Positions 6,355 to 27,269 of a stretch of DNA of 27,269 nt are shown piece after piece. The notes under the pieces were generated by a model, which did no database searches, was not told the DNA's origin, and was given only the letters and a program-made list of their open reading frames with translations. The stretch is from positions 1 to 27,269 of the forward strand of contig CAIQOG010000355.1 of NCBI GenBank assembly GCA_903873355.1, in the 5' to 3' direction. The stretch is from an uncultured Bacteroidales bacterium (GTDB lineage: Bacteria; Bacteroidota; Bacteroidia; Bacteroidales; Paludibacteraceae). Within the stretch, counting starts at the first letter, position 1; every line of letters starts with the position of its first letter. Made by a program: the position numbers and the translations under genes.

Positions 6355-7863
6355 ATGCGTAGGATAATCATTCTTTTTACTATTCTAATCTCTTTTTTCG
6401 TTCTGAAGGCTCAGAAAAATAACTCAACAAACGAAGATGACCGTGTAAAAATGGAAAACGCTCAGATTGGTATTCATGAAGATTCCAAATCGGGTTACAA
6501 ACAAAGTACACATCCTGATGCACAATGGTTTGCCAATGCAGGCTTCGGAATGTTTATCCACTGGAGCATAGCTTCTGTTCGTGAAATTGATTTATCATGG
6601 CCCATGATGGCCGGTACTCAGATAGGATGGCGGGCTGCCAACAATAAAATGGACTCAACCGAAGTTCGAAAAATCATTGATTCGGGCGATTATTTTAGTG
6701 GTCATGCCTGTAAAAAGGACAACTCCTGTCTGACCCCCAATGAGTATTTGGAACAAGCAAAATACTTTAAACCAACCGATTATAATCCCGAAGAGTGGGC
6801 CAAAGCAGCCAAAGCAGTCGGAATGACATACATGGTTTTTACAGCACGTCATCACGATGGATTTGCCATGTGGCCAAGCAAATTTGGTGATTTAAATACG
6901 AAAAATTATATGTCGGGCAAGGATCTTGTTAAACCTTATGTGGATGCCTGCAGAAAATATGGTTTGAAAGTGGGCATATACTATTCTGGTCCCGACTGGC
7001 ACTTTAACCGCGAATTTCAGAGTTTTATGTATTACGGAGTATCGCGCGACTACAAAAATATCCCATCGCTGGATGCCAATCTACAAGCCCGAAAAACAGT
7101 TAAAACTGAAGCGGAAAAGCAGGCTCATTACTACGAGGTGGCAGAATACATTAAAGGCCAAGTTGAAGAATTACTTAGCAATTATGGGAAAATTGATATG
7201 ATTTGGTTTGATGGCGGACCCGATATTCCCAAAGGAAATATTGCCTGGAGTAAATGTATCAGCATGAAACGAATACATGAACTGCAACCACGTATCGTGG
7301 TAAGTCCCCGATTTTTTGGTTACGGCGACTATAAAACCTACGAAGGAGATGCCAAATTACCGACAGATATTCAAAAACAATGGGCTGAATTATGCGTAAC
7401 CATAGCAAAAAGTGGTTGGGGATATACAAAGTATCCATTAAAACCCGTTGAAACTGTTTTGAAACAGCTCATCCTATGTCGGTCGCGAAACACAAACTAC
7501 CTGCTTAATTTTGGTCCAACCAAAGAAGGTATCTTTTCAGAAAAAATGAACCTGGAGTTGGATACAATTGCCCGTTGGATGAAAATAAACGGTCAGTCCC
7601 TTACAAATTGTAGTGCGCTTAACATGGATGAAACTGCTTCAGTACCTGCTACATCCAAAAACAAACACCGCTATTTGTTTTTATTCCACGATAATAATTC
7701 TTCTGAAATACAGCTGAAAACTTCTTCAGAAATAAAACAGCTTACATTGCTCGCTGATAAGAAAAAGATACAAACTTCATTTAGGGATGGACTTTATACT
7801 ATTCCGCTTGCTTCCGTTCATCGTACTGAATTAGTTGATGTAATTGATGTAGAACTCAGATAA
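6355..7863 (+). CDS. GH29 alpha-L-fucosidase, secreted
   Basis: The 502-residue protein would release terminal alpha-L-fucose from a glycan by a retaining mechanism. It has a signal peptide (MRRIIILFTILISFFVLKAQ), the GH29 entry motif FGMFIHWS, the ARHHDGF motif with the His pair at 166-167, and MIWFDGGPD with Asp286 as the predicted nucleophile. The usual HWG is HWS here. The frame is open back to an ATG at 6232, but those 41 extra residues look like non-coding translation and would bury the signal peptide, so ATG 6355 is preferred. The sulfatase follows 16 nt later, which suggests that sulfate is removed from the same glycan. The general acid residue was not identified. The position in GH29 subfamily A or B is undecided, so linkage preference is unknown. 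Confidence 0.88.
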   Translation: MRRIIILFTILISFFVLKAQKNNSTNEDDRVKMENAQIGIHEDSKSGYKQSTHPDAQWFANAGFGMFIHWSIASVREIDLSWPMMAGTQIGWRAANNKMDSTEVRKIIDSGDYFSGHACKKDNSCLTPNEYLEQAKYFKPTDYNPEEWAKAAKAVGMTYMVFTARHHDGFAMWPSKFGDLNTKNYMSGKDLVKPYVDACRKYGLKVGIYYSGPDWHFNREFQSFMYYGVSRDYKNIPSLDANLQARKTVKTEAEKQAHYYEVAEYIKGQVEELLSNYGKIDMIWFDGGPDIPKGNIAWSKCISMKRIHELQPRIVVSPRFFGYGDYKTYEGDAKLPTDIQKQWAELCVTIAKSGWGYTKYPLKPVETVLKQLILCRSRNTNYLLNFGPTKEGIFSEKMNLELDTIARWMKINGQSLTNCSALNMDETASVPATSKNKHRYLFLFHDNNSSEIQLKTSSEIKQLTLLADKKKIQTSFRDGLYTIPLASVHRTELVDVIDVELR

Positions 7864-7879
7864 TCTTAATTTTAAGTTC

Positions 7880-9418: not shown

Positions 9419-9472
9419 GACATCATAATATGAAATCAGATTGAATGTTATGAATCAAATAAAACAATACTT

Positions 9473-10477
9473 ATGACCTATACAGCCAATTTAAACCGTT
9501 ATACCGATATGATTTACCGCCGTTGCGGTAACAGTGGTATTAAATTATCAGCCCTTTCACTGGGCTTGTGGCACAACTTTGGTGATGTTGATGTGGCGGA
9601 AAACTACCGCAATATTCTTCGTTTGGCGTTCGACAGTGGAATTACCCATTTCGACCTGGCCAATAACTATGGACCACCTCCCGGAAGTGCCGAAACTAAC
9701 TTTGGAAGAATACTTCACGAAGATTTCAGAAGCTACCGTGACGAGTTGATCATTTCTACCAAAGCAGGTTATACCATGTGGGATGGACCTTATGGTGACT
9801 GGGGTTCGAAGAAATACCTTGTTTCGAGCCTCGACCAAAGTCTGATACGAATGAAACTGGATTATGTTGATATTTTTTATCACCACCGACCCGACCCAGA
9901 CACCCCGCTCGAAGAAACGATGTCTGCGCTCGATTTAATCGTGCGTCAAGGCAAAGCATTGTATGTGGGTTTATCCAATTATCGTGCTCCCGAAGCTGCT
10001 AAAGCTTTCGAAATCCTAAACCAAATGGGAACACCCTGTCTCATTCACCAACCGAAATACTCGATGTTCGAACGCTGGGTGGAAGGTGGTTTGCTGGATG
10101 TGTTGGAGCAATATGGTGTTGGTTGCATACCCTTTTCACCTTTGGCACAGGGATTACTGACCAATAAATATCTGAACGGAATTCCTGCTGACTCACGGGC
10201 TGCGATTGGTCATTTCCTGAAATCGGATATGATTACTCCGGAGCGAATCAGTCAGATAAAAGCCCTGAACGACATAGCTACAGAGCGAAACCAGTCTTTG
10301 GCGCAAATGGCACTAGCCTGGCTGCTGAAAGACAGACGCGTGACTTCGGTTTTAATTGGTGCCAGTAAACCCTCACAACTGGCTGATTCATTGCTTTGTC
10401 TGAAAAATATTGAGTTCAATGTTCAAGAACTGACAGCCATTGAGTCGATATTGAGCAAAAAAAATAATCGATTTTAA
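9473..10477 (+). CDS. YghZ-like aldo/keto reductase
   Basis: The 334-residue cytosolic protein is strikingly like the YghZ/Gpr group (AKR14-like), an NADPH-dependent reductase of L-glyceraldehyde 3-phosphate and other small aldehydes. The start region matches the group's pattern (RY...M-YRRCGNSGIKLSALSLGLWHNFG), which supports ATG 9473. The catalytic tetrad is complete: Asp61 and Tyr66 in FDLANNYG, Lys97 in ISTKAG, His138 in FYHHR. A C-terminal VTSVLIGAS segment binds the cofactor. It has no signal peptide. Placed between a sulfatase and a sugar transporter, it could reduce L-lactaldehyde made from L-fucose to L-1,2-propanediol, or act on another sugar aldehyde; this role is inferred only from context. 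Confidence 0.85.
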   Translation: MTYTANLNRYTDMIYRRCGNSGIKLSALSLGLWHNFGDVDVAENYRNILRLAFDSGITHFDLANNYGPPPGSAETNFGRILHEDFRSYRDELIISTKAGYTMWDGPYGDWGSKKYLVSSLDQSLIRMKLDYVDIFYHHRPDPDTPLEETMSALDLIVRQGKALYVGLSNYRAPEAAKAFEILNQMGTPCLIHQPKYSMFERWVEGGLLDVLEQYGVGCIPFSPLAQGLLTNKYLNGIPADSRAAIGHFLKSDMITPERISQIKALNDIATERNQSLAQMALAWLLKDRRVTSVLIGASKPSQLADSLLCLKNIEFNVQELTAIESILSKKNNRF

Positions 10478-10521
10478 TAAAACTATAATCAAAATAAATG
10501 TTCTAATCAAATTAAACTATT

Positions 10522-11787: not shown

Positions 11788-11791
11788 ATAA

Positions 11792-11847
11792 ACTGACAGT
11801 CAGTATTTTTACGTGTTGAAAAGTATCGGTTTTTCGGGATTTTCAAC
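11792..11847 (+). terminator. Weak terminator-like hairpins after the transporter gene
   Basis: ACTGA (11792-11796) pairs with TCAGT (11800-11804) and is followed by ATTTTT. A second inverted repeat, GTTGAAAA (11815-11822) with TTTTCAAC (11840-11847), lies just behind. The first stem is short, so efficient termination is uncertain, but the position at the end of the transporter gene and before a new promoter fits. Confidence 0.4.
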
Positions 11848-11946
11848 CATTCTGATATTTAAGCGAATTATTTTAAGACTTGAATAGCCGCATCAAAAAA
11901 CTTTGCTAAGTATCAATGCTAAGTACTATGATGAATTATATGTCAG

Positions 11947-11964
11947 TTTTGTACGTGTACAAAA
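11947..11964. promoter_or_regulatory. 18-bp palindrome, probable operator
   Basis: TTTTGTACGTGTACAAAA is a perfect inverted repeat of 8+8 bases around GT. It lies 28 nt upstream of the -33 element at 11993-11995, a suitable place for an activator. The regulator that binds it is unknown; HTCS proteins are expected to bind direct rather than inverted repeats, so a separate dimeric regulator may be involved. The remainder of the gap 11788-12057 holds the promoter and hairpins and no gene. Confidence 0.5.
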
Positions 11965-11992: not shown

Positions 11993-12021
11993 TTGTAAGA
12001 GTTTAATACAAACTATATTTG
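11993..12021 (+). promoter_or_regulatory. Promoter of the lyase gene group
   Basis: TTG at 11993-11995 and TATATTTG at 12014-12021, separated by 18 nt, fit the Bacteroidota consensus. The ATG of the first gene follows about 36 nt after the -7 box. No further TAnnTTTG box was found in the short gaps downstream, so this may drive the whole group up to the window end. Confidence 0.6.
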
Positions 12022-12057: not shown

Positions 12058-12657
12058 ATGAAAAAACTAATTATTATTGCATTGGTATTATTTTCAGGCT
12101 TTTCAGCTATGGCACAAAGTTACTCATTGAAAAACGGTGGTTTTGAAAATGGAAATTTAATAAAAGGAGTAAAAAATGCTGCTGAAGGCAATGACTGGTA
12201 TTGGCAAGCCGACCAAAACAAAGTACCCGGAAGCGCTATTGAATTAAGCACTACCGAGAAAAATAAAGGCAAAAATTCATTGAAAATGGCTGCCTCCGGA
12301 GAGATACTGGCACGTTACAATGTGGGAATTGTAAAAAGACTGGGTATTCTATCTAAAATTAATTATACCCTGACGTTTTGGGCAAAATCAAATATAGAGG
12401 TAAAATTGAATTGCAACTACGATGGTTTTATCATAAAAGATGGTATATCGACAAAAACAGGAACACCAGGCGACGTAATAAAAATAACAGGAAATAATAA
12501 ATGGGAAAAATACACTCTTCAACTTAAAGGTAAATTATTTTCTGGTGGTGGTAACTGGGATTTTACTCAACCAATTAATTTGAATCTTGGTCTTGAAAAA
12601 CAAACTTTATCGGATAATTTAGAATTATACATTGACGATTTAGAATTACTAGACTAA
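12058..12657 (+). CDS. Small secreted carbohydrate-binding-like protein
   Basis: The 199-residue protein has a clear signal peptide (MKKLIIIALVLFSGFSAMAQ) and then a single predicted beta-sandwich. It opens with LKNGGFENG and closes with LELYIDDLELLD, the framing typical of CBM4/9-like and related galactose-binding-like jelly rolls; aromatic residues that could stack on sugars (DWYWQ, W at several places) lie between. No catalytic motif, lipobox or T9SS tail is visible. It is the first gene after the promoter and is cut off from the lyases by a strong hairpin, so it may be made in larger amounts than they are. A stand-alone glycan-binding role is likely, but the family is not certain. Confidence 0.65.
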   Translation: MKKLIIIALVLFSGFSAMAQSYSLKNGGFENGNLIKGVKNAAEGNDWYWQADQNKVPGSAIELSTTEKNKGKNSLKMAASGEILARYNVGIVKRLGILSKINYTLTFWAKSNIEVKLNCNYDGFIIKDGISTKTGTPGDVIKITGNNKWEKYTLQLKGKLFSGGGNWDFTQPINLNLGLEKQTLSDNLELYIDDLELLD

Positions 12658-15440: not shown

Positions 15441-17903
15441 ATGAAATTTTATTCTGCAATCATTCTTTTTACATTTGTATCCATTTTGATACATGCTCAA
15501 CAAAAAGAAATTGATTTTGCATTTGCGAACTATCATCGTTATTATGCAGATGGGCAAAAAGTGAAAGACCCGGTAAAAGAAGAAGCTATTGTAAAATTCA
15601 GGCAACTTTTTGCCAGGCAAGGGTATCGTTCTGCACAGTTGAATGCCTGTAGCATCGCGGTTGTGAAAGCTATTTCAGAGCTTGATGAGGATGGACGGTT
15701 TACGGATTTAATTTCTATCGAAAAGAAAATTTATGCCGAAAACCTCTGGTTTGAAAAATTCTATTCTACTGAAAACGTTGTGGCTAATTTTCTGGTGGAG
15801 GCTCACAACCGAATATGGAAAATAGCTCTCGAAATTAAAAAAGGAAAACTAAGCGATAATGACCCGAAATACAAGGCTTTTCTCAAAGCAATTTTGCACT
15901 ACGGGAAAATGGAGCTGGGTCGTTCTAATTCGGTGCCACGTTTTCATGCTTCGTGCTTTGCCATACCAACTGCTACAGTGAATACTTACTTTTGTTTGTT
16001 GAAAAAGATGGATGACGTGGAATCCGGAAAGTATAAAGACGAACAACTGACGGCCGTTTGCGATATGTTGAAAGCGCTCTCATTGCAGGCCTGGACTCAG
16101 CCACTGCGCAAAGACGAAACCGACAAGAATGTGGTTCAGATGGATCGATTCCGCAATCATGTTTGGTGGGTTGGTGGCAATGCCCTGGCATACAGAAGTT
16201 TACTTCCGGTTGCATTTATGTATAAATCCATTCCAATGATTGATTTGCTGTCGGACGTATGCCAAAAAGCTATAAGTACCACTTCCCAAAATACAAACAC
16301 CACTTCTTTTTGGACTGAAGGCTTTACCGCCGATGGTGCCGGATGGGGACACGGTCGCCAGAGCCTTGTTTGGGGTTATCCGATTGACGGCACATCCAAT
16401 GCCCTGGCTATGCTGAACATGCTGAAAGCATCGCCCTGGGAAAAGAAACTTTCGCGTGAAAATGTGGATGCGCTAATGAATTTCTTCAGAGGCTCAAACT
16501 GGTATTATTACAAGGGATTTAACTTGTCAGGGCTTGATCGTACGGGTATGCGTTATGATGTTCAACCCAAACCAATCCGCTACATGGGAATGCTGAATAC
16601 GCTCTTAAGCGATTGGAAAGATTCATTTTCTGCTTCCGAATTATCAGAATTGAAGCAACTTGTCAGGGAGGGAGATGACATGAATATAAATATGAATCTG
16701 TTGAATGATGGGGTTTATACCGGAACGCGCTGGTTTTTCAATAATGATGATTTGATGAAGAAGACCGACCGCTATCATATTTTCGTTAATATGGCGTCGG
16801 TGCGTTGCGATGGACTCGAAAGTGCGTTGAACGTGGCTGACGAATACAACTTTTTTACAGATGATGGCATGACCTTGTTTCAACGAGACGGACTGGAATA
16901 TCGCTCCGTTTTTGGCGCCTGGGATGTAAGCGCTACGCCGGGAGTTACTGCACGCGATGGGATGGATAAACTTAAGCCGGTTACTAACTGGCGTGGCTAT
17001 TGCAGCAAATTTAACTTTGCCGGTGCAGCTACAAGTGGTGGTGTAAATGCAGTGGCCGGATTTATAGTTGAAAAAATGAATGGTAGTGATAAAGATAATG
17101 TGAATGATAAAGGAACTAATAATATATCAAACCCAGTTCTATATGGTGTTAAAGCACATAAATCCTATTTTATGCTGGATGATTATTTTGTGGCATTGGG
17201 AGCTGGGGTAACCAATCTGCACCCTGAAATAGATGGAAATATCCGAACTACCATCGACCAGACAGCCTGGACAGAAGATGTGCAAATTTTCTGCAATGGC
17301 CGTTCAAAGCCGGTTTCAGAGGGAATTCAAAACTTTATCGAAAATGGCAAGCCGGTTTGGGTAATTCAGAAAAACAAATTTGCCTACAGCATTTTGCCCG
17401 AATTTACAAAAAATGCCCGTTTCATATCCGAAAGCAAAAAAACGGATTGGATAAAAATGAATAAGGAAAATAAAAAGCTGAAAAATCTTCCCGCATCAGT
17501 TGACATACTCCGGTTGTGGATTGATCATGGTCAACAGGTAGTGAACGACACCTACGGTTACGTGGTTCTTGCCGGCGAGAAAATGCCTTCTGAAAAAATG
17601 CCTTTCAGCGTTTTGAGAAACGATACCCTGATTCAGGCCGTTCAATCTACTGATTATAAAACAACAGAAGTTGTTTTCTTTCAGGCAAATAGTCAGCTCA
17701 GGGCTAAAAACCTTGTGCTGAGTGCTTCAGCTCCCTGTATAATCCTGATTGAGTCAAAAGCCAACCAACAGATACTTTCTGTCAACGACCCTCAAATGGA
17801 TGCAAACCTTAAGCAAATTCAGATAGTACTTAACGGTAAAATCATTTTGGTGGATATGCCAAAGGGCGATTTATGCGGAAAACCGGTGACAATCAAACAA
17901 TAA
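15441..17903 (+). CDS. PL8-like polysaccharide lyase, no T9SS tail (lyase B)
   Basis: The 820-residue protein has a signal peptide (MKFYSAIILFTFVSILIHAQ) and the same body as lyase A, sharing stretches such as SCFAIP, FRN-VWWVGGNA-AYRSLLPVA and EGFT-DGAGWGHG. The catalytic set appears complete: Asn247, His304, Tyr313 (spacing 9), Arg367 and Arg371 (R-x3-R, as in chondroitinase AC and hyaluronate lyase). It ends soon after GDLCGKPVTIK, exactly where lyase A continues into its secretion tail, so it is probably periplasmic. It follows lyase A by 26 nt and is a tandem duplicate of it. The substrate is a uronate glycan of unknown identity. Confidence 0.85.
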   Translation: MKFYSAIILFTFVSILIHAQQKEIDFAFANYHRYYADGQKVKDPVKEEAIVKFRQLFARQGYRSAQLNACSIAVVKAISELDEDGRFTDLISIEKKIYAENLWFEKFYSTENVVANFLVEAHNRIWKIALEIKKGKLSDNDPKYKAFLKAILHYGKMELGRSNSVPRFHASCFAIPTATVNTYFCLLKKMDDVESGKYKDEQLTAVCDMLKALSLQAWTQPLRKDETDKNVVQMDRFRNHVWWVGGNALAYRSLLPVAFMYKSIPMIDLLSDVCQKAISTTSQNTNTTSFWTEGFTADGAGWGHGRQSLVWGYPIDGTSNALAMLNMLKASPWEKKLSRENVDALMNFFRGSNWYYYKGFNLSGLDRTGMRYDVQPKPIRYMGMLNTLLSDWKDSFSASELSELKQLVREGDDMNINMNLLNDGVYTGTRWFFNNDDLMKKTDRYHIFVNMASVRCDGLESALNVADEYNFFTDDGMTLFQRDGLEYRSVFGAWDVSATPGVTARDGMDKLKPVTNWRGYCSKFNFAGAATSGGVNAVAGFIVEKMNGSDKDNVNDKGTNNISNPVLYGVKAHKSYFMLDDYFVALGAGVTNLHPEIDGNIRTTIDQTAWTEDVQIFCNGRSKPVSEGIQNFIENGKPVWVIQKNKFAYSILPEFTKNARFISESKKTDWIKMNKENKKLKNLPASVDILRLWIDHGQQVVNDTYGYVVLAGEKMPSEKMPFSVLRNDTLIQAVQSTDYKTTEVVFFQANSQLRAKNLVLSASAPCIILIESKANQQILSVNDPQMDANLKQIQIVLNGKIILVDMPKGDLCGKPVTIKQ

Positions 17904-17904
17904 A

Positions 17905-19284
17905 ATGAACTCAATGAAAAAGACAAAATTGTTATTAGTTGTCCTTGTTGTATTGGCCCAGGGGCTAATGGCTCAGGAAACTCCACCGAAAGAGTATCAG
18001 GCACGATATCAGGAAGTTATGAAACAAACCCAATGGTGGCGCGAAGCCCGTTTTGGTATGTTCATTCATTTTGGCGCGTATGCAGTTCCGGGCCGTGGCG
18101 AATGGGTAAAATCTAACGAAAGACTGACTACAGAACAATATCAAAAATACGTTGACGCCTTTAATCCGGTGGATTTTGATGCCAGAAAATGGGCTAGAGC
18201 CGCCAAAGCTGCCGGTATGAAATATGCTGTTTTAACAGCTAAACACCACGACGGATTTTGCCTGTTCGATAGTAAACTTACTGATTATAAATTAAGTACA
18301 AGGTTTGGCGGACGTGATGTGGTTCGCGAATTTTTGGATGCATTCCGTGCCGAAGGGCTGAAAGTGGGTTTATATTATTCCATTATCGACTGGCATCATC
18401 CCGATTATCCGAATGTGGGAAATCATCCTCAACGGGGCGATTCTGTCTATGCCAAACAGAAATTCAACTGGTATAACTACCTGAAATACATGCACGGCCA
18501 GGTTGAAGAACTGACCAAAAATTATGGAAAACTGGATATCATGTGGTTCGATTATTCATTCCCGGGATATTATGGTGAAAAATGGAAAGCGAAGGAACTT
18601 GTAAAAATGATTCGAACCAATCAGCCTACAATTATCCTGGATAACCGACTGGAAGAAAATACAGGCGTGGTAGGCGACAAAAGACAAATCAGTGAACTCG
18701 GAGATTTCGATACACCCGAACAGGGCATTCCCGAAGCTCCGCTGGTGGATAAATTCAACAACCCAATTCCCTGGGAAACCTGCCTGACTATGAATGGGGT
18801 TTGGGGGTACAGCGAGCAGGACAAAAACTGGAAATCACCCGAGCTGATTATTCATAGTCTGGTAAACTGCGTGAGTAAAAATGGAAATATGTTGTTGAAT
18901 GTAGGACCCGATCCACGCGGAAATTTCCCTGCAGAATGCGTAAATATTTTATCAGAAGTAGGAAAGTGGATGGAAAAAAATGGAGAAAGTATTTACGGTT
19001 GTGGTGCCAGTCCGCTGAAACGTCAGGATTGGGGACGGTATACGCAGAAAGACAATCTGGTCTTTGCACATTGGCTTTACCCCAACCTGGGAGATATAAA
19101 TGCTAAAGGCATTGATTCGAAAGCAGTTAAAAATGTGTTTATGCTTAATTCAGGAGCTGAACTCGATACTTATAAAACATGGTTTGGAAACAAAGAAGCT
19201 GATAATTTATTCATTCGAGTGAGTAAATCGCCTCAAAAACCCGATATGCACGACACTGTTATTAAAATAGAAATGAAAAAATAA
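17905..19284 (+). CDS. Second GH29-type enzyme, secreted
   Basis: The 459-residue protein would remove fucose or a similar residue from the lyase products. It carries a signal peptide, FGMFIHFG at about 50-57, AKHHDGF with the His pair at 114-115, and IMWFDYSF with Asp216 as predicted nucleophile. The segment after the nucleophile (YSFPGYYG) differs from the GGPD of the other fucosidase here, so the two are not recent duplicates and probably have different specificity. The start may be ATG 17905 or 17914; the second gives a tighter signal peptide (MKKTKLLLVVLVVLAQ). It lies 1 nt after lyase B and overlaps the next gene by one base, which shows tight co-expression with the lyases. Confidence 0.85.
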   Translation: MNSMKKTKLLLVVLVVLAQGLMAQETPPKEYQARYQEVMKQTQWWREARFGMFIHFGAYAVPGRGEWVKSNERLTTEQYQKYVDAFNPVDFDARKWARAAKAAGMKYAVLTAKHHDGFCLFDSKLTDYKLSTRFGGRDVVREFLDAFRAEGLKVGLYYSIIDWHHPDYPNVGNHPQRGDSVYAKQKFNWYNYLKYMHGQVEELTKNYGKLDIMWFDYSFPGYYGEKWKAKELVKMIRTNQPTIILDNRLEENTGVVGDKRQISELGDFDTPEQGIPEAPLVDKFNNPIPWETCLTMNGVWGYSEQDKNWKSPELIIHSLVNCVSKNGNMLLNVGPDPRGNFPAECVNILSEVGKWMEKNGESIYGCGASPLKRQDWGRYTQKDNLVFAHWLYPNLGDINAKGIDSKAVKNVFMLNSGAELDTYKTWFGNKEADNLFIRVSKSPQKPDMHDTVIKIEMKK

Positions 19285-21326
19285 TGAAACAGTATTTATT
19301 TAAACTGACTTTCCTTGCCTTTATTCTAATTGGAAAAACAACAAATATTGCTGCGTCGGATTTTTCGGTAATTTATGACCGGATGTACCGCGAATACCTG
19401 ACTAATCCAACCAAATCATCCATTGAAAACCTGCTCAGTAAGATGGATCAGGATGGTAAATTTGACGTAATTAACTATCAGGCTAAAGATGGCTCACCAC
19501 GGAAACATGTTCAGAATCTGATTATATTAGCAGCAGCTTATCAGAACACCGAAAACGGTTTTTATCATAACGATGACTTAAGAAAGTCTTATCTGAAATC
19601 GCTTAATTTCTGGATTGAAACAAATAATACGGCAACCAATTGGTGGTACCGCTACATTCCATATCCCAAGGAGCTTTCGAAGGGTATTATTCTTATGGCA
19701 GCGGAAATAAAAAAAGACAAAGCGCTGTTTGATAAAACCATTAAATACCTGCGCTGGAGCTATGAGAATTCGGAAGCCGGAAGACTAACCGGTGCTAATG
19801 GCGCGGATATAATCATCGGATCACTTGCAGCCAGTATCCTGACTGAAAATGACGCTCAGATGATTGATTTTAAAAACAAGATGACCGGATTGCTTACGAT
19901 ACAACCGGTTGAAGGCATTCAACCCGATTATTTGTTTGCTCAGCATTGTGGAAAGGGCAGGCAGCTATATTTTACCAACTATGGAAAAGAGTTTGTAAAT
20001 TCGGTTATGTTTTATCTCGAGTTTTGCGACGGCACAAAATATCAGACACCGGGTGTCGATTTATTGCAGGATTTGTTTATCAATGGTGTACAATGGATTT
20101 TTTACAGCAAAAATTACGACCCCAATAATTCCGGGCGTTACAACAGTTCCGATCAGTATTACAGCCAGATAAAAGGACTTACGGACCGGATTCAGAAACT
20201 GAATTGCAGTAAAAAGGCAGAGTTGAAAAAAGCCTGCAGCCGAATTACAGGTGAAAATTCACTTTCTGGCAATCGCATGTTCTGGCGATTTGATTACATG
20301 ATTAACCGCCGTACAAATTATATGGTCAGCACCCGTATGTCGTCAACACGCACGGTGGGAAGTGAAGCCGGAAATGGCGATGGTGAGTTTAATTTCTATT
20401 CCGGAAACGGAACAAACTATATTTTTGTTGACGGAAACGAGTATAACCGCGCTTACTTCAAAAAAATCAACAACCGTCAATTCCCTGGAATAACAGCCGA
20501 GCAGGATGATGTACCGCTTCCCATCCCCAACTGGGGTGAAAATGCCGGCAATAGCAATTCTTTTGCAGGTGGTGCCTCCGACAGTACTTATGGCGTTTGC
20601 GGAATGATTCTTGACCGTAGGGGGCTGAAAGCTCATAAATCCTGGTTTTATTTTGATGATGAATTTGTTTGTCTGGGTGCAGGAATTCATCAAACCGACG
20701 GCAAAGCCAATGTGTACAGTGCTATTAATCAGTGTAATATTGCCGGAAAAGTTCAATTCTCTGAAAACGGAAAAACTAAAATGCTGAAAGATAAAGCAAT
20801 CCTAAAGTCGGCCAGCTGGATTTTGCACGGAAAAGTTGGATATTTTAACCTGAATCCGGCATCTAAGCTGGTTTTGGCGTGCGATAGTAACCTCTTCAGT
20901 TTAAATATCAATCATGGTACCAACCCCGATAATGCAGAATATGCTTATCTGGTAAAACCCAATACAGTAAATGTCGTTGATGCAGATAAATATTCAGCTA
21001 AAATACCGGTCAGCATTTTGCAAAATAAACCTGAAATTCAGGCTGTTCGCCATAATCTGTTGAAAATCAATGAAATTATTTTCTATACAGCAGGTCAGTT
21101 AACTATCAGTAAAGAGCAATCCATTTCGGTGGATGCGCCATGTGCTGTGCTTTGGAACGAACAAAAGGCTGAGTTAACCCTGGCCAATCCGCTTTGCGAA
21201 ACCAATAATCCGGCTGCTATAAAAGTAAAAATCAGCGACAGAGACTCACAGAAAGAAATTATATTTCAGATGCCAACCGGACTAAAAGCGGGAAGCAGCC
21301 TTACAAAGAAAATAGCCAATAATTAA
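19284..21326 (+). CDS. PL8-like lyase closest to chondroitinase AC type (lyase C)
   Basis: This 680-residue protein has a signal peptide and the compact form of PL8 enzymes. LTGANGADI contains Asn172 in the expected context. The catalytic segment QPDYLFAQHCGKGRQLYFTNYG gives His221 and Tyr233, 12 residues apart instead of the usual 9, because of about three extra residues after the His. Arg285 (SGRYNSS) matches the first arginine of the R-x3-R pair; the second is Ser289. It has no T9SS tail, so it is likely periplasmic. Start ATG overlaps the stop of the GH29 gene (TAATG). The fold call is sound, but activity is less certain because of the altered active site. Confidence 0.8.
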   Translation: MKQYLFKLTFLAFILIGKTTNIAASDFSVIYDRMYREYLTNPTKSSIENLLSKMDQDGKFDVINYQAKDGSPRKHVQNLIILAAAYQNTENGFYHNDDLRKSYLKSLNFWIETNNTATNWWYRYIPYPKELSKGIILMAAEIKKDKALFDKTIKYLRWSYENSEAGRLTGANGADIIIGSLAASILTENDAQMIDFKNKMTGLLTIQPVEGIQPDYLFAQHCGKGRQLYFTNYGKEFVNSVMFYLEFCDGTKYQTPGVDLLQDLFINGVQWIFYSKNYDPNNSGRYNSSDQYYSQIKGLTDRIQKLNCSKKAELKKACSRITGENSLSGNRMFWRFDYMINRRTNYMVSTRMSSTRTVGSEAGNGDGEFNFYSGNGTNYIFVDGNEYNRAYFKKINNRQFPGITAEQDDVPLPIPNWGENAGNSNSFAGGASDSTYGVCGMILDRRGLKAHKSWFYFDDEFVCLGAGIHQTDGKANVYSAINQCNIAGKVQFSENGKTKMLKDKAILKSASWILHGKVGYFNLNPASKLVLACDSNLFSLNINHGTNPDNAEYAYLVKPNTVNVVDADKYSAKIPVSILQNKPEIQAVRHNLLKINEIIFYTAGQLTISKEQSISVDAPCAVLWNEQKAELTLANPLCETNNPAAIKVKISDRDSQKEIIFQMPTGLKAGSSLTKKIANN

Positions 21327-21331: not shown

Positions 21332-22753
21332 ATGAAGAAAATCAGCACCTTAGTAATTTTTGTCAGTCTGTTTTTTATTGCTTTGACGGTAAATGCAGAA
21401 TTAAAAGTAGCATCTGTTCTGGGTAACAATATGGTATTGCAGCGTAATACCGAAGTGAAGTTATGGGGAAAAGCCACGCCTGCAAAAAGTCTGAAGATTA
21501 GCACCGGATGGAGTACTACCGTTTTTACTACTGTAGCCGATGAAAAAGGTGACTGGATGCTAAAGGTCAAAACCGCCGATGCAGGTGGTCCTTATACGAT
21601 ACGAATCGAAATGGGAAAAGAGAAATTACAACTGGATAATATTCTGTTGGGCGAGGTATGGCTTTGCAGCGGACAATCGAATATGGAGATGCCTGTTTTG
21701 GGATTTCCTTCACAGCCTGTCATTGGTTCGGGCGATGCATTGTTTGATGCCGAAAATTCAAACTTACGCCTGTTTACAGTGAAAAAAGCCCCCATGACTA
21801 GCCCTCAGGACACTTGTGCCGGAAAATGGGAATCAGCCAATGCCGAAACAGTTGCAAAATTCAGTGCTGTGGGATATTTTTATGCCAAACTTTTACAGCA
21901 GAAGTTGAAAATTCCGGTAGGAATCATTTGTTCGAGTGTAGGAGGTACACGTATAGAAGCCTGGATGAGTGAAAAAACATTAGCCGGATTTCCCGAGCCT
22001 CTCAAACAATCAGCTCAGGAACTAAGAGAGCAAAACCGCCCTTCGCATCTTTACAACGGTATGATTCACCCGATAATTAACTACACAATTAAAGGCGCTA
22101 TCTGGTATCAGGCCGAATCGAACAGATCTAATTATCAGTATTATGCAGATTTGCTGACTGCCATGGTGGGCAATTGGCGTGACGATTTCGGAGTTGGAAC
22201 ATTTCCGTTTTATTATGTGCAAATTGCACCTTACTCGTATGGTGATAGTAAGGGACTTCAGACAGCTTTTCTGCGCGACCAACAACTGAAAGCCATGTCA
22301 ATGATACCAAATTCAGGCATGGTGTGTACCCTCGATATTGGTAGCGAAGGCTGGATTCATCCCGCCGAAAAACAAACGGTAAGTAAAAGGCTGGCAGGCT
22401 GGGCTTTGTCAGAAACCTATGGTTTTAAGGGACTTGAGTATAAATCACCCACATATAAAAGCTTTGAGGTAAAAGATAGCATAATAACTATTTCTTTCAA
22501 TAATGCTGAAAATGGTCTGACAACTTTTGATAAAAATGTGGAATGTTTTCAGATGGCCGGCAATGATAAAGTGTTTTATCCGGCTAAAATGATGAAAATG
22601 AACAACGATTTCAGGAAAATACAGATTACAAGCGATAAAGTTAAACTTCCGGTTGCCATTCGTTATGCATTCAGTAATTTCCCCAAAACAGAAGGTTATT
22701 TGTTCAGTACTACCGGATTGCCGGTGCCTTCGTTCAGAACGGATAATTGGTAG
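21332..22753 (+). CDS. SIAE-type (SASA family) carbohydrate O-acetylesterase
   Basis: The 473-residue protein would remove acetyl groups from sugar residues. It has a signal peptide (to about VNA), an N-terminal beta-domain, and the SGNH-type nucleophile motif CSGQSNMEMP with Ser116. The oxyanion-like motif SSVGGTRIEAW and a late His343 in GWIHPAEKQ complete the family pattern. The residue usually Asp two before the His (as in DIHP) is Trp341 here. It follows lyase C by 5 nt. Acetylated substrates such as N-acetylated or O-acetylated uronic or amino sugars would fit, but family members also act on plant and sialic acid acetyl groups. Confidence 0.82.
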   Translation: MKKISTLVIFVSLFFIALTVNAELKVASVLGNNMVLQRNTEVKLWGKATPAKSLKISTGWSTTVFTTVADEKGDWMLKVKTADAGGPYTIRIEMGKEKLQLDNILLGEVWLCSGQSNMEMPVLGFPSQPVIGSGDALFDAENSNLRLFTVKKAPMTSPQDTCAGKWESANAETVAKFSAVGYFYAKLLQQKLKIPVGIICSSVGGTRIEAWMSEKTLAGFPEPLKQSAQELREQNRPSHLYNGMIHPIINYTIKGAIWYQAESNRSNYQYYADLLTAMVGNWRDDFGVGTFPFYYVQIAPYSYGDSKGLQTAFLRDQQLKAMSMIPNSGMVCTLDIGSEGWIHPAEKQTVSKRLAGWALSETYGFKGLEYKSPTYKSFEVKDSIITISFNNAENGLTTFDKNVECFQMAGNDKVFYPAKMMKMNNDFRKIQITSDKVKLPVAIRYAFSNFPKTEGYLFSTTGLPVPSFRTDNW

Positions 22754-22781: not shown

Positions 22782-25700
22782 ATGAAAACAAAACAGTTAG
22801 TGTTTTTTGCTTTTATTCTGATTCTTCCGGTTCAACTGAAAGCATTAGGTGCTTGGCACGAATGGAGTTCTGCTACCATGACAGCATTAGCTAAAACTAA
22901 CTGTACAATTCAATACAGCAAAACTGCTGTGTATCAGGATTCCTCCATGCTTGTAACATACAGTAAGGGGGCAAGTCTGACTTTTCCATACAATTATGCA
23001 TCATCGTCCATCAATACGGGTGGCTGGTTTCTAATGCCTTTTTTAGATTTGTCGGCCAACCATGTGCAGGATACAGTGAAAGTAGAATTTTTGCTTAACG
23101 GTGTTGTGAAAGCAAGCTATAAAATGAATGCCCGCAAGCCCGGCTGGAATCTGTTTAAAGTACATCAGATAGCTTCCACCAATTCAGTATCGCAGGGATT
23201 TGATACCTGTAAGCTTAGCGGTACTATACCGGACATCCCTACTCAGATTAGAATCAGTTTTCCCAACAATTCCGGTTGTGTTTACCTTGGAAAAGTATTA
23301 CTTTGTCCGGATGCCACCTGGACAGCTTTACGGATGGCTCCTGAGGATAGAAAAGAGGATTTTATTTCGCCCTCGCTTTACAAACTGCCAACAACTCTGG
23401 TTAATGTGAGTGTTGCGCAACAAACTGCACTTCAGCAAATAGCCGTCAATATGGATGAAGCATTCAATGTTTCGGCTGATGTACAGCTAGCCACAGTTCC
23501 TGCAGCAACGATGACAGATTTACAAACGCGCTATAAAACCTGGAATATTGTGAGAAACGGCAGTATTTTAAATGGCATTGATTCGCTGATTTATAATTCC
23601 ACACCCGATTATCATACCACCCTGGCTGTGTTTGGCGATTTGGCTCTGGACATCGCCAGAAACTACAGGAATACACAGAGCGCAACAGATAAAGCTACTT
23701 TATTAGCCCTGTTTTATGACCTGTTCGATTTTGGAATTTTTAGGGGAGGAATGTATGAGAGTTGGAACAATGGTGTCAGTTTTGCCGATGCCACGTTTTT
23801 AATGCGAACCGAATTGCAGCAAAGTGGCAGACTGACCCCCGAAGTACTCAGTGATTTTAAAACCAATACAGGTTATAATCGTATTTTTTTACCCTATTCC
23901 TACATGGCAAAAGGCATGGGACTTTATACAGGCCGGGTTTATCGGACAGGTGAATTGGGAGAAGATATGGATTACTTTCGTTTGACATCCCACCGCCTGA
24001 TACTTTTTAATTTATTGAACAACAACCCAGCCGAGCAGGTGCGCGATATGACGGCTATTTCTTCGTATTTTTCCAATTTTGTTTTTCAATATTCACCCAC
24101 AGTGCTTGATGGATTCAAACCTGATGGCACCCTGAATCATCACTGGGGCTGGATTGACCAGTACGGGCTGGATGGCTTGCATTGGGCAACCCGCATTGTT
24201 TATGTGCTGTCCAATACCGAATTTAAGGTCACACAGCCGGCTTACCAACTTGTATATGATTTGCTTAAGGCACAGGATATGCGAAGTTTGAATAATATCG
24301 TTCCGGTAACGCTTTCGGGCAAAGGTGGAATGCCATATGATTATGGTGGCAATACGCAGGAATCGGTTGACAGATTCGCTTATATGGCCCTTGCCGGAGA
24401 ATACAACGGAGGAACAGTACCGGATAGTTACATGAGCCAGACTTTTATGCGCAAATACGCCAATCAGGTCACTGCGCCCTACAATGGACAGGCAGTTTAT
24501 ACGTTCTCAGCTTTTGAAAATAAGGCCAAAAACCAATTGTCAGCTCTCGGTTTTACAGCCAACTCTGAACCATCCGGGCACAAAACACTCAGTTATGGTG
24601 CGGCCTTTATCCACCGACGCGATAAATGGATAGTAAGTTTAAAAACCAACAGCAGATATCAATTTGTAAGACAATCCAATGATCCCTGGATTACTTATTT
24701 TGCCAATGGAATGTTGGAAATTAATGGTTCCACCTGGCTTCGGTATGGCTCAGCAAAGTTACAATCCGATTTTGGTGCAAATGGTTACGACTGGCGTAAA
24801 ATGCCGGGAACAACGTCCGTTAATTTTGCTGATATTACGAAGATAATCTGTAAAGAATCCTATTATTTCAGAACCGCTAATACTTTTGTGGGTGGAGTGA
24901 TGCAGGACGGAAACGGTGTTTTTACCATGCAAATACCGTCATACCCAAATAACAGTTCAGGTCTGGCATCCTTTACCGGCAATAAAAGTTATTTCTGCTT
25001 CGACAATACCATTGTGTGTCTGGGAAGTAATATCTCTAATAATGTAGTTTCAGATTCTACCATTACAACCCTGTTTCAGGATGCAGTTTCCACTACCGAT
25101 TCAACCTATATTGATAACAAAGGTTTAACCACAAGTCCTTACAATGCTGCCAACTACCTGTATTCACCCTCCTGGCTGATGAACAGTCATAAGGTTGGAT
25201 ACTGGATACCCGTAGAGCAGAATCTGCGGTTTTCGCGTATCTCACAGAGTAATAAAAACTGGACGAATACAGCCACTGTAACCGGAACATTAGCTACAGC
25301 CTGGTTAAATCATGGTATTGGCCCCAAAAATGTAACTTATTCGTACTTTATGAAACTGAATACTTCGAGAACTGAAATGCTGAATTTTGATGCTCAAATG
25401 CAGGGATCAGCTCCACCAGTTACAGTTCTGGCTATGACTGATAAACTTCATGCTGTAGAATCTGTAAGCAACAATAGCTATGCAGCAGCAGTTATCAATG
25501 CTGGTTCGAATATTAACCTGAAAGATGTAATCAGCGTCAGCAAACCCTGTGTGTTTATATTGAAAACCCTGAGCAGTACTCAAAAGAAATTATCGGTGGC
25601 TTACCCTGACCTGGATTTTATTGATAATGGTTTGTATAGTGATCAAACCTGGTGGAGTTATAGCAATACAAACACAGTACAACTAAAACTGAAAGGCAAC

Positions 25701-26078
25701 TGGTCACTGGCTAATCCTGTTTCTCCAAATGTAAGTGTGATTAGCAAGCTGAATAATGTTACCACCATCCAGTACTTGCTTAAGGACGGACTCACAACAG
25801 ATGCATTAATAACACTTGATACAACAGCCATTGACACAATTCAAAAGGCATCAGACCCGAAAATTATAGCTACTCCAACCGAAATTTCAATTTCATTGCC
25901 TGTAGATGGTTGGAGCAATACGACCGGTCAGATTTTAAGTCTTGATGGAAAAACTATACAGGGATTCGTTATGGATAAATCTGTAACTAGTGTTCTAACA
26001 ATTAATTTTGTGCATGGTGCTTATTTGATTCATCTGAAAAGTGATAGTCAGACATTTACACGAAAAGTTATTATTTAA
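22782..26078 (+). CDS. Chondroitinase-ABC-like PL8 lyase with T9SS tail (lyase D)
   Basis: The 1098-residue protein has a signal peptide, an N-terminal beta-sandwich (about 25-180) like the lead domain of chondroitin ABC lyases, a toroid catalytic domain, and a super-sandwich. In PDGTLNHHWGWIDQY the pair His454-Tyr461 is 7 residues apart, the spacing of chondroitinase ABC (His501-Tyr508), not the 9 of AC-type enzymes. The position of its Arg560 falls near Lys514 (LSGKGGM), and Glu596 may match Glu653. From about residue 1030 it has a T9SS-like tail (GQILSLDGK...HGAYLIHL...KVII). It is probably secreted and acts on the outside of the cell. It is a distant relative of lyases A-C. Confidence 0.82.
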   Translation: MKTKQLVFFAFILILPVQLKALGAWHEWSSATMTALAKTNCTIQYSKTAVYQDSSMLVTYSKGASLTFPYNYASSSINTGGWFLMPFLDLSANHVQDTVKVEFLLNGVVKASYKMNARKPGWNLFKVHQIASTNSVSQGFDTCKLSGTIPDIPTQIRISFPNNSGCVYLGKVLLCPDATWTALRMAPEDRKEDFISPSLYKLPTTLVNVSVAQQTALQQIAVNMDEAFNVSADVQLATVPAATMTDLQTRYKTWNIVRNGSILNGIDSLIYNSTPDYHTTLAVFGDLALDIARNYRNTQSATDKATLLALFYDLFDFGIFRGGMYESWNNGVSFADATFLMRTELQQSGRLTPEVLSDFKTNTGYNRIFLPYSYMAKGMGLYTGRVYRTGELGEDMDYFRLTSHRLILFNLLNNNPAEQVRDMTAISSYFSNFVFQYSPTVLDGFKPDGTLNHHWGWIDQYGLDGLHWATRIVYVLSNTEFKVTQPAYQLVYDLLKAQDMRSLNNIVPVTLSGKGGMPYDYGGNTQESVDRFAYMALAGEYNGGTVPDSYMSQTFMRKYANQVTAPYNGQAVYTFSAFENKAKNQLSALGFTANSEPSGHKTLSYGAAFIHRRDKWIVSLKTNSRYQFVRQSNDPWITYFANGMLEINGSTWLRYGSAKLQSDFGANGYDWRKMPGTTSVNFADITKIICKESYYFRTANTFVGGVMQDGNGVFTMQIPSYPNNSSGLASFTGNKSYFCFDNTIVCLGSNISNNVVSDSTITTLFQDAVSTTDSTYIDNKGLTTSPYNAANYLYSPSWLMNSHKVGYWIPVEQNLRFSRISQSNKNWTNTATVTGTLATAWLNHGIGPKNVTYSYFMKLNTSRTEMLNFDAQMQGSAPPVTVLAMTDKLHAVESVSNNSYAAAVINAGSNINLKDVISVSKPCVFILKTLSSTQKKLSVAYPDLDFIDNGLYSDQTWWSYSNTNTVQLKLKGNWSLANPVSPNVSVISKLNNVTTIQYLLKDGLTTDALITLDTTAIDTIQKASDPKIIATPTEISISLPVDGWSNTTGQILSLDGKTIQGFVMDKSVTSVLTINFVHGAYLIHLKSDSQTFTRKVII

Positions 26079-26094
26079 CATCCACAATAATTGA

Positions 26095-27269
26095 ATGAAA
26101 AGACTTTTAATTAGTTGTATTGTTCTTGTCAGTTTAACTGCTGCATTTTCACAGGAGAAAACCGTTTTTGTCGATACAATCAACAGACAAACAGCTATTT
26201 ATAAGCAAAGGCAGCATATTAATTTCCGCGGAAATTTAAACAACTCACGTCTTATTTTCGATAAAGACAAAGTTGGGCGAGTGGCGTTTTTAGGTGGCTC
26301 TATTACAGCCATGAAGGGTTGGCATAATCAGATAATGGAATATCTGACAAAACGATTTCCGGATACAAAATTCGATTTTATTGAAGCGGGAATTGGTTCA
26401 ACAGGTTCTACGCCGGGTGCATTCCGTATGAAGAAAGATGTGTTTAAAAACGGAAAGGTTGATTTGTTGTTCGTGGAAGCGGCAGTGAATGATGATACAA
26501 ACGGATTCGATTCAATAGCTCAAATCCGTGGCATGGAAGGCGAAGTGCGTCAGGCATTACTAAGTAATCCGAACATGGATATTGTGATGCAACATTTTAT
26601 TTATGACCCGTTTATCCCAATCTTAAATGCAGGAAAACAACCCGGTGTTATTCTGAATCATGAAAAAGTGGCCGAATACTACCAGATTCCGTCCATCAAT
26701 CAGGCACAGGAAATTGCTGAACGGATGAAAGCCGGTGAGTTTGACTGGAAACAGTTTGGCGGTACACATCCATTACCCTTCGGACAACGGTTTTATGCTG
26801 CAACGATGAAGGTATTGCTGGATAAAATGTGGTCAGAAACCAATACGAAGACAATATTGGAGCCACATAATATTCCAACCAAACCACTGGATGATTTTAG
26901 TTATTTTAATGGAGCGTTGGTTGATCCGCGTGAAGCAAGAATCAAAAACGGTTGGTTGTACGAAAATCCATGGATGCCTAAAGTACTTGCTGCAGTAAGG
27001 TTTACAAACGTTGGAATTTTGGAGGCGTTAGATCCGGAGTCAGAACTCTCATTTCAGTTTGAAGGCACTGATGTTGGTATTTATTGTGTTTGCGGTCCGA
27101 ATGCCGGAATCGTGAAATTTAGTATTGATGGCGGAGATTTCAAAAAACTGGATTTATTTACCAGATGGAGTAAAAACCTGTATATTCCCTGGCTTCATAT
27201 TCTGGCTAATAATCTGAAAAACAAAAATCACACACTAATACTGAGAATGTCTGAAGATAAAAACAAAGA
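26095..27269 (+). CDS. SGNH/GDSL-type esterase with C-terminal domain (partial)
   Basis: The gene starts at ATG 26095, 16 nt after lyase D, and is open to the window end (391 residues visible). It has a signal peptide (MKRLLISCIVLVSLTAAFSQ). SGNH blocks are visible: FLGGSIT with Ser69, the GIGSTGST segment, EAAVND with Asn132, and GGTHPLPFG with His225. The Asp normally three residues before this His is Gly222, so a Ser-His dyad or a different acid is likely. After about residue 250 a second, beta-rich region begins that I cannot assign. It probably removes acetyl or similar ester groups from the same glycan. The true C-terminus lies outside the window. Confidence 0.8.
   Translation, partial: MKRLLISCIVLVSLTAAFSQEKTVFVDTINRQTAIYKQRQHINFRGNLNNSRLIFDKDKVGRVAFLGGSITAMKGWHNQIMEYLTKRFPDTKFDFIEAGIGSTGSTPGAFRMKKDVFKNGKVDLLFVEAAVNDDTNGFDSIAQIRGMEGEVRQALLSNPNMDIVMQHFIYDPFIPILNAGKQPGVILNHEKVAEYYQIPSINQAQEIAERMKAGEFDWKQFGGTHPLPFGQRFYAATMKVLLDKMWSETNTKTILEPHNIPTKPLDDFSYFNGALVDPREARIKNGWLYENPWMPKVLAAVRFTNVGILEALDPESELSFQFEGTDVGIYCVCGPNAGIVKFSIDGGDFKKLDLFTRWSKNLYIPWLHILANNLKNKNHTLILRMSEDKNK

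What the first reader, a model, noticed from the sequence alone, without database searches (positions are those of the whole stretch)
6355..27269. Candidate locus for a fucosylated, sulfated, uronate-rich and possibly acetylated glycan
The window encodes four PL8-like lyases, two different GH29 enzymes, a sulfatase, two esterases, a lectin-like protein, an FHS sugar transporter and an aldehyde reductase under an HTCS. Fucosylated chondroitin sulfate (chondroitin backbone with sulfated fucose branches) would need lyases, fucosidases and sulfatases together; an O-acetylated fucose/uronate exopolysaccharide is the main alternative and would better explain two esterases. No unsaturated glucuronyl hydrolase (GH88/GH105) is in the window, so the path looks incomplete.
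Basis: partly seen in the sequence, partly recalled or inferred. Interest (0 to 1): 0.75.

Follow-up and report, generated by a model that had tools for sequence, protein, structure and literature searches.

The report
Fucose-adapted chondroitin digestion gene cluster
A Paludibacter-type bacterium, with relatives in lakes, carries a long gene cluster that looks built to strip fucose and sulfate from a chondroitin-like polysaccharide and then cut it up, a fucose-adapted version of a system known from gut bacteria.

Summary
In detail: HTCS, two GH29, one S1 sulfatase, AKR, FHS-like transporter, weak lectin-like protein, four PL8, a SASA esterase and a sub-threshold GDSL protein on one strand. 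The 'missing' GH88 is a window-edge effect. In the nearest genome (99.91% identical DNA) a GH2 split between two contigs leads on to three more PL8, a GH88, a third GH29 and a chondroitinase-B-like protein. Two lake MAGs carry large parts of the set on single contigs, with SusC-like proteins, GH88 and sugar-kinase or NagB-type genes. The sulfatase is closest to two chondroitin-4-sulfate sulfatases and keeps every active-site residue I could map. The four PL8 keep catalytic His and Tyr. Best reading: a utilisation locus for a fucose-bearing, perhaps acetylated, chondroitin-type glycan: fucosidases and the 4-O-sulfatase prepare the chain or its fragments, PL8 lyases cut, GH88 removes the unsaturated uronate. 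Echinoderm fucosylated chondroitin sulfate is unlikely as the natural substrate: the nearest placed relatives are freshwater and C207 and C220 hold no second S1 sulfatase. A GAG-like exopolymer or animal chondroitin fits better. No activity is shown, and the fucose-on-polymer step is inferred. New variant of a known kind.

The parts
2078..6187 (+). Hybrid two-component system regulator (HTCS)
   Evidence: Pfam Reg_prop, Y_Y_Y, HisKA, HATPase_c, Response_reg, HTH_18; 86% and 77% identical copies head the related loci L075 and L040; the HTCS of the L039 cluster is only 41% identical
6355..7863 (+). GH29a alpha-L-fucosidase, N-terminal hydrophobic stretch suggests secretion
   Evidence: PF01120 221.9 bits; WFD motif at residue 284; best PDB match 6gn6, 170 bits; 85% identical copy in L075
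7880..9418 (+). S1 sulfatase, chondroitin 4-O-sulfatase type (S1_27-like), serine-type formylglycine site
   Evidence: 6s21 708.5 bits, 8di0 (Bfo2290) 692.7 bits, 6j66 CS/DS 4-O-endosulfatase 311 bits; S87 in S-x-P-x-R aligns with formylglycine Ser91 of Bfo2290; D36, N108, K141, H143, H241, D320, K333 and W166, T186, D188 kept
9473..10477 (+). Aldo-keto reductase, L-glyceraldehyde-3-phosphate reductase subfamily
   Evidence: PF00248 231.8 bits; NF007388 460 bits, cut-off 448. No counterpart between sulfatase and PL8b in L075 or before the binding protein in L039
10522..11787 (+). FHS-like MFS sugar transporter
   Evidence: PF07690 37.6 bits, cut-off 33.4; gluP and fucP below their cut-offs
12014..12021 (+). 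TATATTTG, fits the Bacteroides -7 box TAnnTTTG (consensus recalled), in the 270 b gap, the longest gap between genes after 6355
   Evidence: sequence; not tested against chance
12058..12657 (+). Small carbohydrate-binding-like protein, remotely like BT4411
   Evidence: CBM_4_9 20 bits, below cut-off; BT_4411_fam 32.1 bits, cut-off 220; 83% identical copy before PL8a in L039
12766..15414 (+). PL8a lyase
   Evidence: Lyase_8 129.7 bits; best PDB match chondroitinase AC, weak at 30.2 bits; catalytic N/H/Y/R columns kept
15441..17903 (+). PL8b lyase
   Evidence: Lyase_8 161.3 bits; 1cb8 90.1 bits; N230, H304, Y313, R367 kept, invariant in the 15-row alignment A1; low-confidence model ranks chondroitinase AC first
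17905..19284 (+). GH29b alpha-L-fucosidase, 1 b after PL8b
   Evidence: PF01120 323.8 bits; 6gn6 508 bits; WFD at 214; directly downstream of PL8b in L039, L040, L041, L075 (these loci were fetched by PL8b)
19284..21326 (+). PL8c lyase, chondroitinase-AC-like
   Evidence: Lyase_8 192.2 and Lyase_8_N 77.3 bits; 1hm2 217 bits; three extra residues between catalytic His and Tyr
21332..22753 (+). SASA-family carbohydrate acetylesterase
   Evidence: PF03629 66.9 bits; GQSN at 114
22782..26078 (+). PL8d lyase, chondroitinase-ABC-like
   Evidence: Lyase_catalyt 99.8 and Lyase_8 90.2 bits; 2q1f 134.5 bits; HHWG..Y motif shared with PL8f and PL8g; T9SS tail 21 bits, cut-off 23
26095..27269 (+). GDSL-like hydrolase, runs off the window
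   Evidence: PF13472 30.8 bits, just under cut-off 32.9; full copy 409 aa in L032

Best explanation
The window is one part of a catabolic locus for a chondroitin-type glycosaminoglycan that carries fucose side groups and perhaps O-acetyl groups. The HTCS senses oligosaccharides and switches the locus on. GH29 fucosidases remove the side groups, and the S1_27-type sulfatase removes 4-O-sulfate from GalNAc, either inside the chain like BT3349 or from the lyase products like Bfo2290. The PL8 lyases (AC-like PL8a, b, c and e; ABC-like PL8d, f and g, the last ones in the continuation) cut hexosamine-uronate bonds by beta-elimination. The GH88 downstream removes the unsaturated uronate, leaving hexosamine, fucose and ketodeoxyuronate for uptake (FHS-like transporter; SusC-like proteins in relatives). 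Shown by computation: families, active-site residues, gene order, likely continuation, conservation. Inferred: substrate, order of steps, secretion, regulation.
For: Sulfatase closest to 6s21/BT3349 and 8di0/Bfo2290, both chondroitin-4-sulfate enzymes; 7 of 7 active-site residues named for Bfo2290, its formylglycine serine, and 4 of 4 further BT3349 residues (one of them the same His, by my numbering) are kept. Best PDB match of each of the four PL8 is a chondroitinase. Continuation with GH88, three PL8, GH29 and a PF14592 chondroitinase-B-like protein, placed by the split GH2 and by G002, where PL8d-GH2-GH88-GH29-PL8g stand in this order on one contig. APH-family kinase and two NagB-type genes at the end of the G008 cluster, APH kinase inside the G002 cluster, suggest hexosamine; BT4240, also PF01636, is a GalNAc kinase, but orthology was not tested. 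Beside PL8b homologues, 7 of 75 loci hold a sulfatase 56% or more identical to this one, in lake MAGs and in Bacteroides and Phocaeicola.
Against: No activity data. GH29b has thousands of relatives (6067 of 7995 scored candidates at E<=1e-100) whose surroundings were not examined, so it may not be specific to such loci. The GH29b-PL8b adjacency in four other loci is partly circular, since the loci were fetched with PL8b. Most loci with this lyase lack a GH29b-like gene (present in 10 of 75). A GH2 beta-galactosidase/glucuronidase-like enzyme and DUF4955 helices are not needed for plain chondroitin. PL8a's match to chondroitinase AC is weak. The relatives are not uniform: the run seen in G008 lacks PL8a, SASA and the binding protein, and that in G002 lacks GH29a beside the sulfatase. 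The binding protein is far below the BT4411 cut-off. No SusD match (PF07980) on C207 or C220, no KduI match in G001 (87% complete).
Confidence: 0.55

Rival explanations
1. The substrate is a microbial or algal exopolysaccharide of fucose and uronic acid, O-acetylated and sometimes sulfated, without a chondroitin backbone. PL8 enzymes act as in xanthan side-chain lysis, and the esterases deacetylate first.
For: PL8 includes xanthan lyases, which appear among weaker PDB matches. In Pinibacter aurantiacus L047, PL8b sits with two GH29a-like, one GH29b-like, a SASA esterase and a GH35 but no S1_27-like match. SASA neighbours in 4 of 75 loci.
Against: The CS-4-sulfatase-type enzyme with conserved site, the chondroitinase-B-like protein and NagB/APH genes in a relative point to an amino-sugar polymer; the top PDB match of each of the four PL8 is a chondroitinase.
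Confidence: 0.22
2. An ordinary chondroitin/hyaluronan/dermatan locus in which the fucosidases act on other glycans of the same source (for example N- or O-glycans of proteoglycans), so fucose is not on the polymer itself.
For: GH29b is a common type. PL8b with GH2, PL8c or an S1_27-like sulfatase but without a GH29 match in the stretch held occurs in gut Bacteroides (L046, L067).
Against: Close packing of GH29b with PL8b (1 b gap here; 3 to 49 b in L039, L040, L041, L075) and three GH29 in the extended cluster; no hexosaminidase, mannosidase or protease family appeared among the C207 and C220 proteins scanned.
Confidence: 0.18
3. Classical fucosylated chondroitin sulfate of echinoderms, with sulfated fucose branches, is the natural substrate.
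For: Composition of that polymer (GlcA, GalNAc, Fuc, sulfate; PMC11545675 passages) matches the enzyme set.
Against: The two best relatives are lake bacteria (the window's own habitat is unknown). Branches are Fuc2S4S, Fuc3S4S or Fuc4S, but no second S1 match lies on C207 or C220; sulfatases elsewhere in G001 could still serve.
Confidence: 0.05

Closest known systems
Bacteroides thetaiotaomicron PUL CS/DS/HA (BT3324-BT3350, PMC6994673; passages and section 11 seen)
   Same: HTCS, PL8 lyases, S1_27 4-O-sulfatase, GH88; SusC-like proteins in the relatives of this locus
   Different: The gene list seen there has three lyases, one GH88, two sulfatases, one SusC/D pair, an HTCS and two unknowns, and 'fucose' occurs 0 times in the main text; here fucosidases, GH2, a SASA esterase and seven PL8 are added
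Tannerella forsythia chondroitin sulfate A operon (PMC9481042; passages seen)
   Same: Sulfatase Bfo2290 is the second-best PDB match of the window sulfatase (692.7 bits)
   Different: 'fucos' occurs 0 times in the main text; Bfo2290 is reported as exolytic
Bacteroides caccae chondroitin locus with PL35, GH88, GH109 and glucuronate dehydratase (PMC12269599; abstract and outline seen)
   Same: Desulfation, lyase and GH88 acting together
   Different: Different lyase family; no GH29 in the abstract
BT4411 hyaluronan-associated protein (PMC12877422; passages seen)
   Same: Small accessory protein beside a lyase; weak profile match
   Different: 32.1 bits against a cut-off of 220; the neighbour lyase is PL8, not PL33

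Membership tests
Polysaccharide lyase family 8 | Lyase_8 domain over the curated cut-off | tested here: met
   4 of 4 window proteins
Polysaccharide lyase family 8 | Catalytic Asn, His, Tyr, Arg (roles recalled from chondroitinase AC) | tested here: met
   Columns kept in PL8a, b, c aligned with PL8e and five other PL8 of the nearest genome; H and Y motif kept in PL8d; Asn and Arg not examined for PL8d; no activity
S1_27 chondroitin 4-O-sulfatase | Closest characterised relatives are S1_27 | tested here: met
   6s21 708.5 bits; BT3349 is S1_27 in PMC6994673; SulfAtlas itself not searched
S1_27 chondroitin 4-O-sulfatase | Formylglycine serine and active-site residues | tested here: met
   S87; 7 of 7 Bfo2290 residues; BT3349 H140, W163, T183, D185 fit H143, W166, T186, D188 with a numbering offset that I inferred
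S1_27 chondroitin 4-O-sulfatase | Endo action | not testable with these tools
   BT3349 is endo, Bfo2290 reported exo
GH29 fucosidase | PF01120 over cut-off and nucleophile motif (WFD, recalled) | tested here: met
   2 of 2
GAG polysaccharide utilisation locus | Lyase, sulfatase, GH88 and HTCS in one cluster | tested here: met
   On single contigs in G002 and G008; for the window itself through the inferred C207-C220 join
GAG polysaccharide utilisation locus | SusC/SusD pair in the cluster | tested here: inconclusive
   SusC-like (about 30% to a G001 SusC) in G002 and G008, SusD there named by position only; no PF07980 match on C207 or C220
Locus for fucosylated chondroitin sulfate | Sulfatase for the fucose branches in the locus | tested here: not met
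   One S1 match on C207 and none on C220, of 21 matches in G001 at E<=1e-20; the genome is 87% complete and the cluster's far end is not held
Locus for fucosylated chondroitin sulfate | Growth on or degradation of the polymer | not testable with these tools
   needs cultures or purified enzymes
BT4411 hyaluronan-binding family | NF058548 over its cut-off | tested here: not met
   32.1 bits, cut-off 220

The most novel reading that the evidence does not exclude
The locus is a dedicated freshwater pathway for a fucosylated chondroitin-like polymer, of a kind I did not find described outside the sea, possibly the sulfated GAG-like exopolymer reported chemically from microbial aggregates. Its GH29-PL8 pairs would then be enzymes coupled to defucosylate and cut such a chain.
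Probability: 0.25. Interest if true: 0.65.

Novelty: new variant of a known kind. Interest (0 to 1): 0.42.

Why it matters
Sulfated GAG-like polymers are measured by dye methods in wastewater granules, with the bacterial production pathways not well known (PMC10483923, passages), and in exopolymers of a marine anaerobe (PMC7356697, passages). A locus that joins a chondroitin-type sulfatase, fucosidases and seven PL8 lyases offers a ready enzyme kit to find out what such a polymer is. The PL8b branch, common in gut Bacteroides, gets a testable substrate guess; I did not search for published work on that branch by name.

Tried and rejected
AlphaFold2 of PL8b with 15 rows gave only mean pLDDT 65. 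Foldseek ranked chondroitinase AC first, but the query TM-score is low (0.38), so I use it only as weak support; pdb_via and a second structure job were not run. I looked for PDB codes 9EU1, 9RZX, 9S0X and 6GN6 in print to learn fucosidase substrates: 9EU1 matched only an unrelated paper, 9RZX and 9S0X none, 6GN6 several fucosidase papers that I did not open. Searches for a fucosylated-chondroitin degradation locus listed no such locus by title or abstract start: 11 of 11 papers listed; 20 of 178 listed; 1 of 1; 7 of 7; subscription papers are not held. A published Paludibacter enrichment on granule polymers, recalled, was not among the listings (20 of 37; 20 of 79). The recurrent 405 aa neighbour (17 of 75 loci) first looked like GH88 but its example is under the cut-off (22.2 bits, cut-off 26.6), so it is not counted. 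Heparin-type substrates were dropped: no heparinase family appeared among the proteins scanned. A consensus scan for promoters and terminators was uninformative.
Full report
Observation. The window encodes, all on the + strand after an apparently unrelated AAA_14 ATPase at 397-1590 (-): HTCS, GH29a, S1 sulfatase, AKR, FHS-like MFS, small binding-like protein, PL8a, PL8b, GH29b, PL8c, SASA esterase, PL8d and a GDSL-like protein cut by the window end. Gaps between genes from 12058 on are at most 108 bases; GH29b starts 1 b after PL8b and PL8c overlaps GH29b by 1 b. The longest gap between genes after 6355 is 270 b, before 12058, with a TATATTTG box.

Organism. The best match of PL8b is a Paludibacter sp. 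MAG protein (99% over 820 aa). The window's own assembly is not held, and its habitat is not known to me. Genome G001 carries the window at 99.91% identity over 26,592 aligned bases on contig C207. It is 4.7 Mb in 440 contigs, 87% complete.

The missing GH88. C207 continues about 890 bases past the window and ends inside a GH2 gene. Contig C220 begins inside a GH2 gene. Aligned one by one to the 910-residue open frame of the GH2 in L075, the first part covers residues 11-281 (244 of 271 identical) and the second 297-910 (571 of 614), leaving 15 residues that neither contig holds; the contig ends do not overlap. C220 then holds PL8e, an RHGA/DUF4955 helix, PL8f (ABC-like), GH88 (269 bits), a third GH29, more DUF4955 proteins, a PF14592 chondroitinase-B-like protein (86.1 bits, cut-off 24), PL8g and another GH2. 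The join is inferred, but relatives support it. In G002 (MAG from lake Loclat; L039, L127-L129) one contig holds an HTCS (only 41%), SusC-like, a SusD-position protein, a DUF5017 protein, four large or beta-rich proteins, then the binding protein 83%, PL8a 78%, PL8b 73%, GH29b 90%, PL8c 66%, PL8e 75%, an APH kinase on the other strand, sulfatase 85%, SASA 78%, PL8d 69%, GH2 72%, GH88 80%, the C220 GH29 85% and PL8g 66%. In G008 (MAG named AM-2014, by my reading lake Alinen Mustajarvi; L075, L124-L126) one contig holds HTCS 86%, GH29a 85%, sulfatase 89%, PL8b 71%, GH29b 84%, PL8c 74%, PL8e 79%, GH2 93%, GH88 83%, two DUF4955-helix-like proteins (22%), SusC-like, a SusD-position protein, a PL8d-like protein (24%), a GH88-family protein (48.7 bits), APH kinase and two NagB-type proteins. 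Not all window genes recur: the G008 run lacks PL8a, SASA and the binding protein; in G002 no GH29a stands by the sulfatase; AKR and FHS are in neither run. Both lakes are in a freshwater metagenome set (PMC8121793, passages).

What the parts say. The sulfatase's best solved relatives are 6s21 (708.5 bits), 8di0 (692.7 bits) and 6j66, a chondroitin/dermatan 4-O-endosulfatase (311 bits). 8DI0 is Bfo2290, a chondroitin sulfate A sulfatase that the paper calls exolytic, and 6S21 is listed there beside it (PMC9481042, passages). BT3349 is the S1_27 endo 4-O-sulfatase crystallised with a chondroitin sulfate A oligosaccharide (PMC6994673, section 11); that 6s21 is BT3349 rests on its name, the paper and recall. 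The seven conserved active-site residues that the paper lists (D40, N112, K145, H147, H248, D326, K340) align with D36, N108, K141, H143, H241, D320 and K333, and formylglycine Ser91 with S87. BT3349 H140, W163, T183 and D185 fit H143, W166, T186 and D188 if its numbering is the chain's minus 5, which is my inference; H143 is then counted in both lists. The serine-type site needs an anSME-type maturase (recalled); G001 has one over the cut-off. PL8a-c match chondroitinase AC best (PL8a weakly) and PL8d chondroitinase ABC. In an alignment of nine PL8 proteins the Asn, His, Tyr and Arg columns are kept in PL8a, b and c; PL8d keeps the HH...Y motif. PL8a and PL8b show no Lyase_8_N match. Both GH29 have the WFD motif.

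How it spreads. PL8b relatives at E<=1e-150 were found in 4 of 295 Bacteroidales genomes searched, G001 included. A scan of the named-genome collection gave 75 distinct loci (158 pattern stretches, 81 confirmed, best 80 kept); some genomes give several. A blastp panel on ORFs of at least 150 aa found in them: a PL8b-type best match in 59 of 75 (13 of the other 16 match PL8a best), an S1_27-like sulfatase at any identity in 22 of 75 and at 56% or more in 7 of 75 (L039, L040, L067, L069, L072, L075, L111), SusC-like in 27, GH29b-like in 10, a GH2 of this type in 5, SASA in 4, GH88 in 3, GH29a-like in 2. L039's SASA is cut by its flank and its GH88 lies beyond, so neither is in these counts. Flanks are at most 10 kb and often cut, so the counts are lower bounds, and no background rate was computed. 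Close copies of GH29b (76-90%) occur in 4 of 75 loci, each directly downstream of PL8b on the same strand, 3 to 49 b away; because the loci were fetched with PL8b, nearness is partly built in. A GH29b search of 395 class genomes at E<=1e-140 found it only in G001, yet the protein database holds thousands of relatives whose surroundings I did not examine. The fucosidases look like an addition to an older PL8b core; this is an inference from counts, not from a tree.

Genome context. G001 has 12 PL8 domains, 10 GH88 matches, 21 sulfatase matches at E<=1e-20, two of them pieces of one frame, one anSME over the cut-off, one fucose isomerase, no KduI and 30 SusD matches (PF07980), none on C207 or C220. 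A separate locus on C375 has three other PL8, a sulfatase and a SusC/SusD pair, so this locus is not the genome's only GAG-type system.

Mechanism. By analogy with the B. theta locus (PMC6994673), the sulfatase frees chain or products of 4-sulfate, lyases cut, and GH88 takes the unsaturated uronate. Here fucosidases are added. In echinoderm fucosylated chondroitin sulfate fucose is linked to the uronate (PMC11545675, passages); that such branches block standard chondroitinases is recalled. A lyase locus for such a chain would need fucosidases first, and the gene pairing fits that. The substrate is inferred, not shown. Sulfated GAG-like polymers have been measured in wastewater granules (PMC10483923, passages), a plausible non-animal source; fish, mollusc or zooplankton chondroitin is another (recalled).

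Verdict. A real, conserved, larger-than-seen cluster; a fucose-adapted variant of known GAG loci.

Noticed in passing
L035 and L036 (G001:C375:20001-60000): A second locus in the nearest genome: SusC/SusD pair, three PL8 of about 700 to 1016 aa, a sulfatase and a GH88-family protein (33.7 bits, cut-off 26.6); probably its ordinary GAG locus.
   Followed up: partly
G001:C207:14764-17223 (window 15441-17903): The G001 copy of PL8b has one in-frame TAG, while the window copy is open; strain difference or assembly error.
   Followed up: no
L046 (Bacteroides rodentium), L067 (B. congonensis), L069, L072: Gut-type Bacteroidales carry PL8b with PL8c, GH2, GH3 or an S1_27-like sulfatase and no GH29 match in the stretch held: a GAG-type module worth a look in gut strains.
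   Followed up: partly
L047 (Pinibacter aurantiacus) 1125-15421: PL8b beside two GH29a-like, a SASA esterase, a GH29b-like and a GH35 gene in a distant Bacteroidota, without an S1_27-like match.
   Followed up: partly
75 loci, e.g. L091:4638-5855: A 400 aa protein weakly like GH88 and GH76 stands near the lyase in 17 of 75 loci; could be a GH154-type uronate dehydratase (guess).
   Followed up: partly
L043:3328-5571 and five other loci: A GH95-family protein (169.6 bits for its example), another fucosidase-type family, stands near the lyase in 6 of 75 loci.
   Followed up: partly
L002 / L004 (G001:C110:6740-8239): A second GH29a-type gene (67% DNA identity to the window stretch) in a cluster with a GDSL lipase and a melibiase.
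   Followed up: no
window 9473-11787: AKR of the L-glyceraldehyde-3-phosphate reductase subfamily next to the FHS-like transporter; both absent from the matching place in L075 and L039, perhaps a lineage-specific insert that handles fucose.
   Followed up: no
window 397-1590: AAA_14 ATPase on the minus strand, apparently unrelated to the locus.
   Followed up: no
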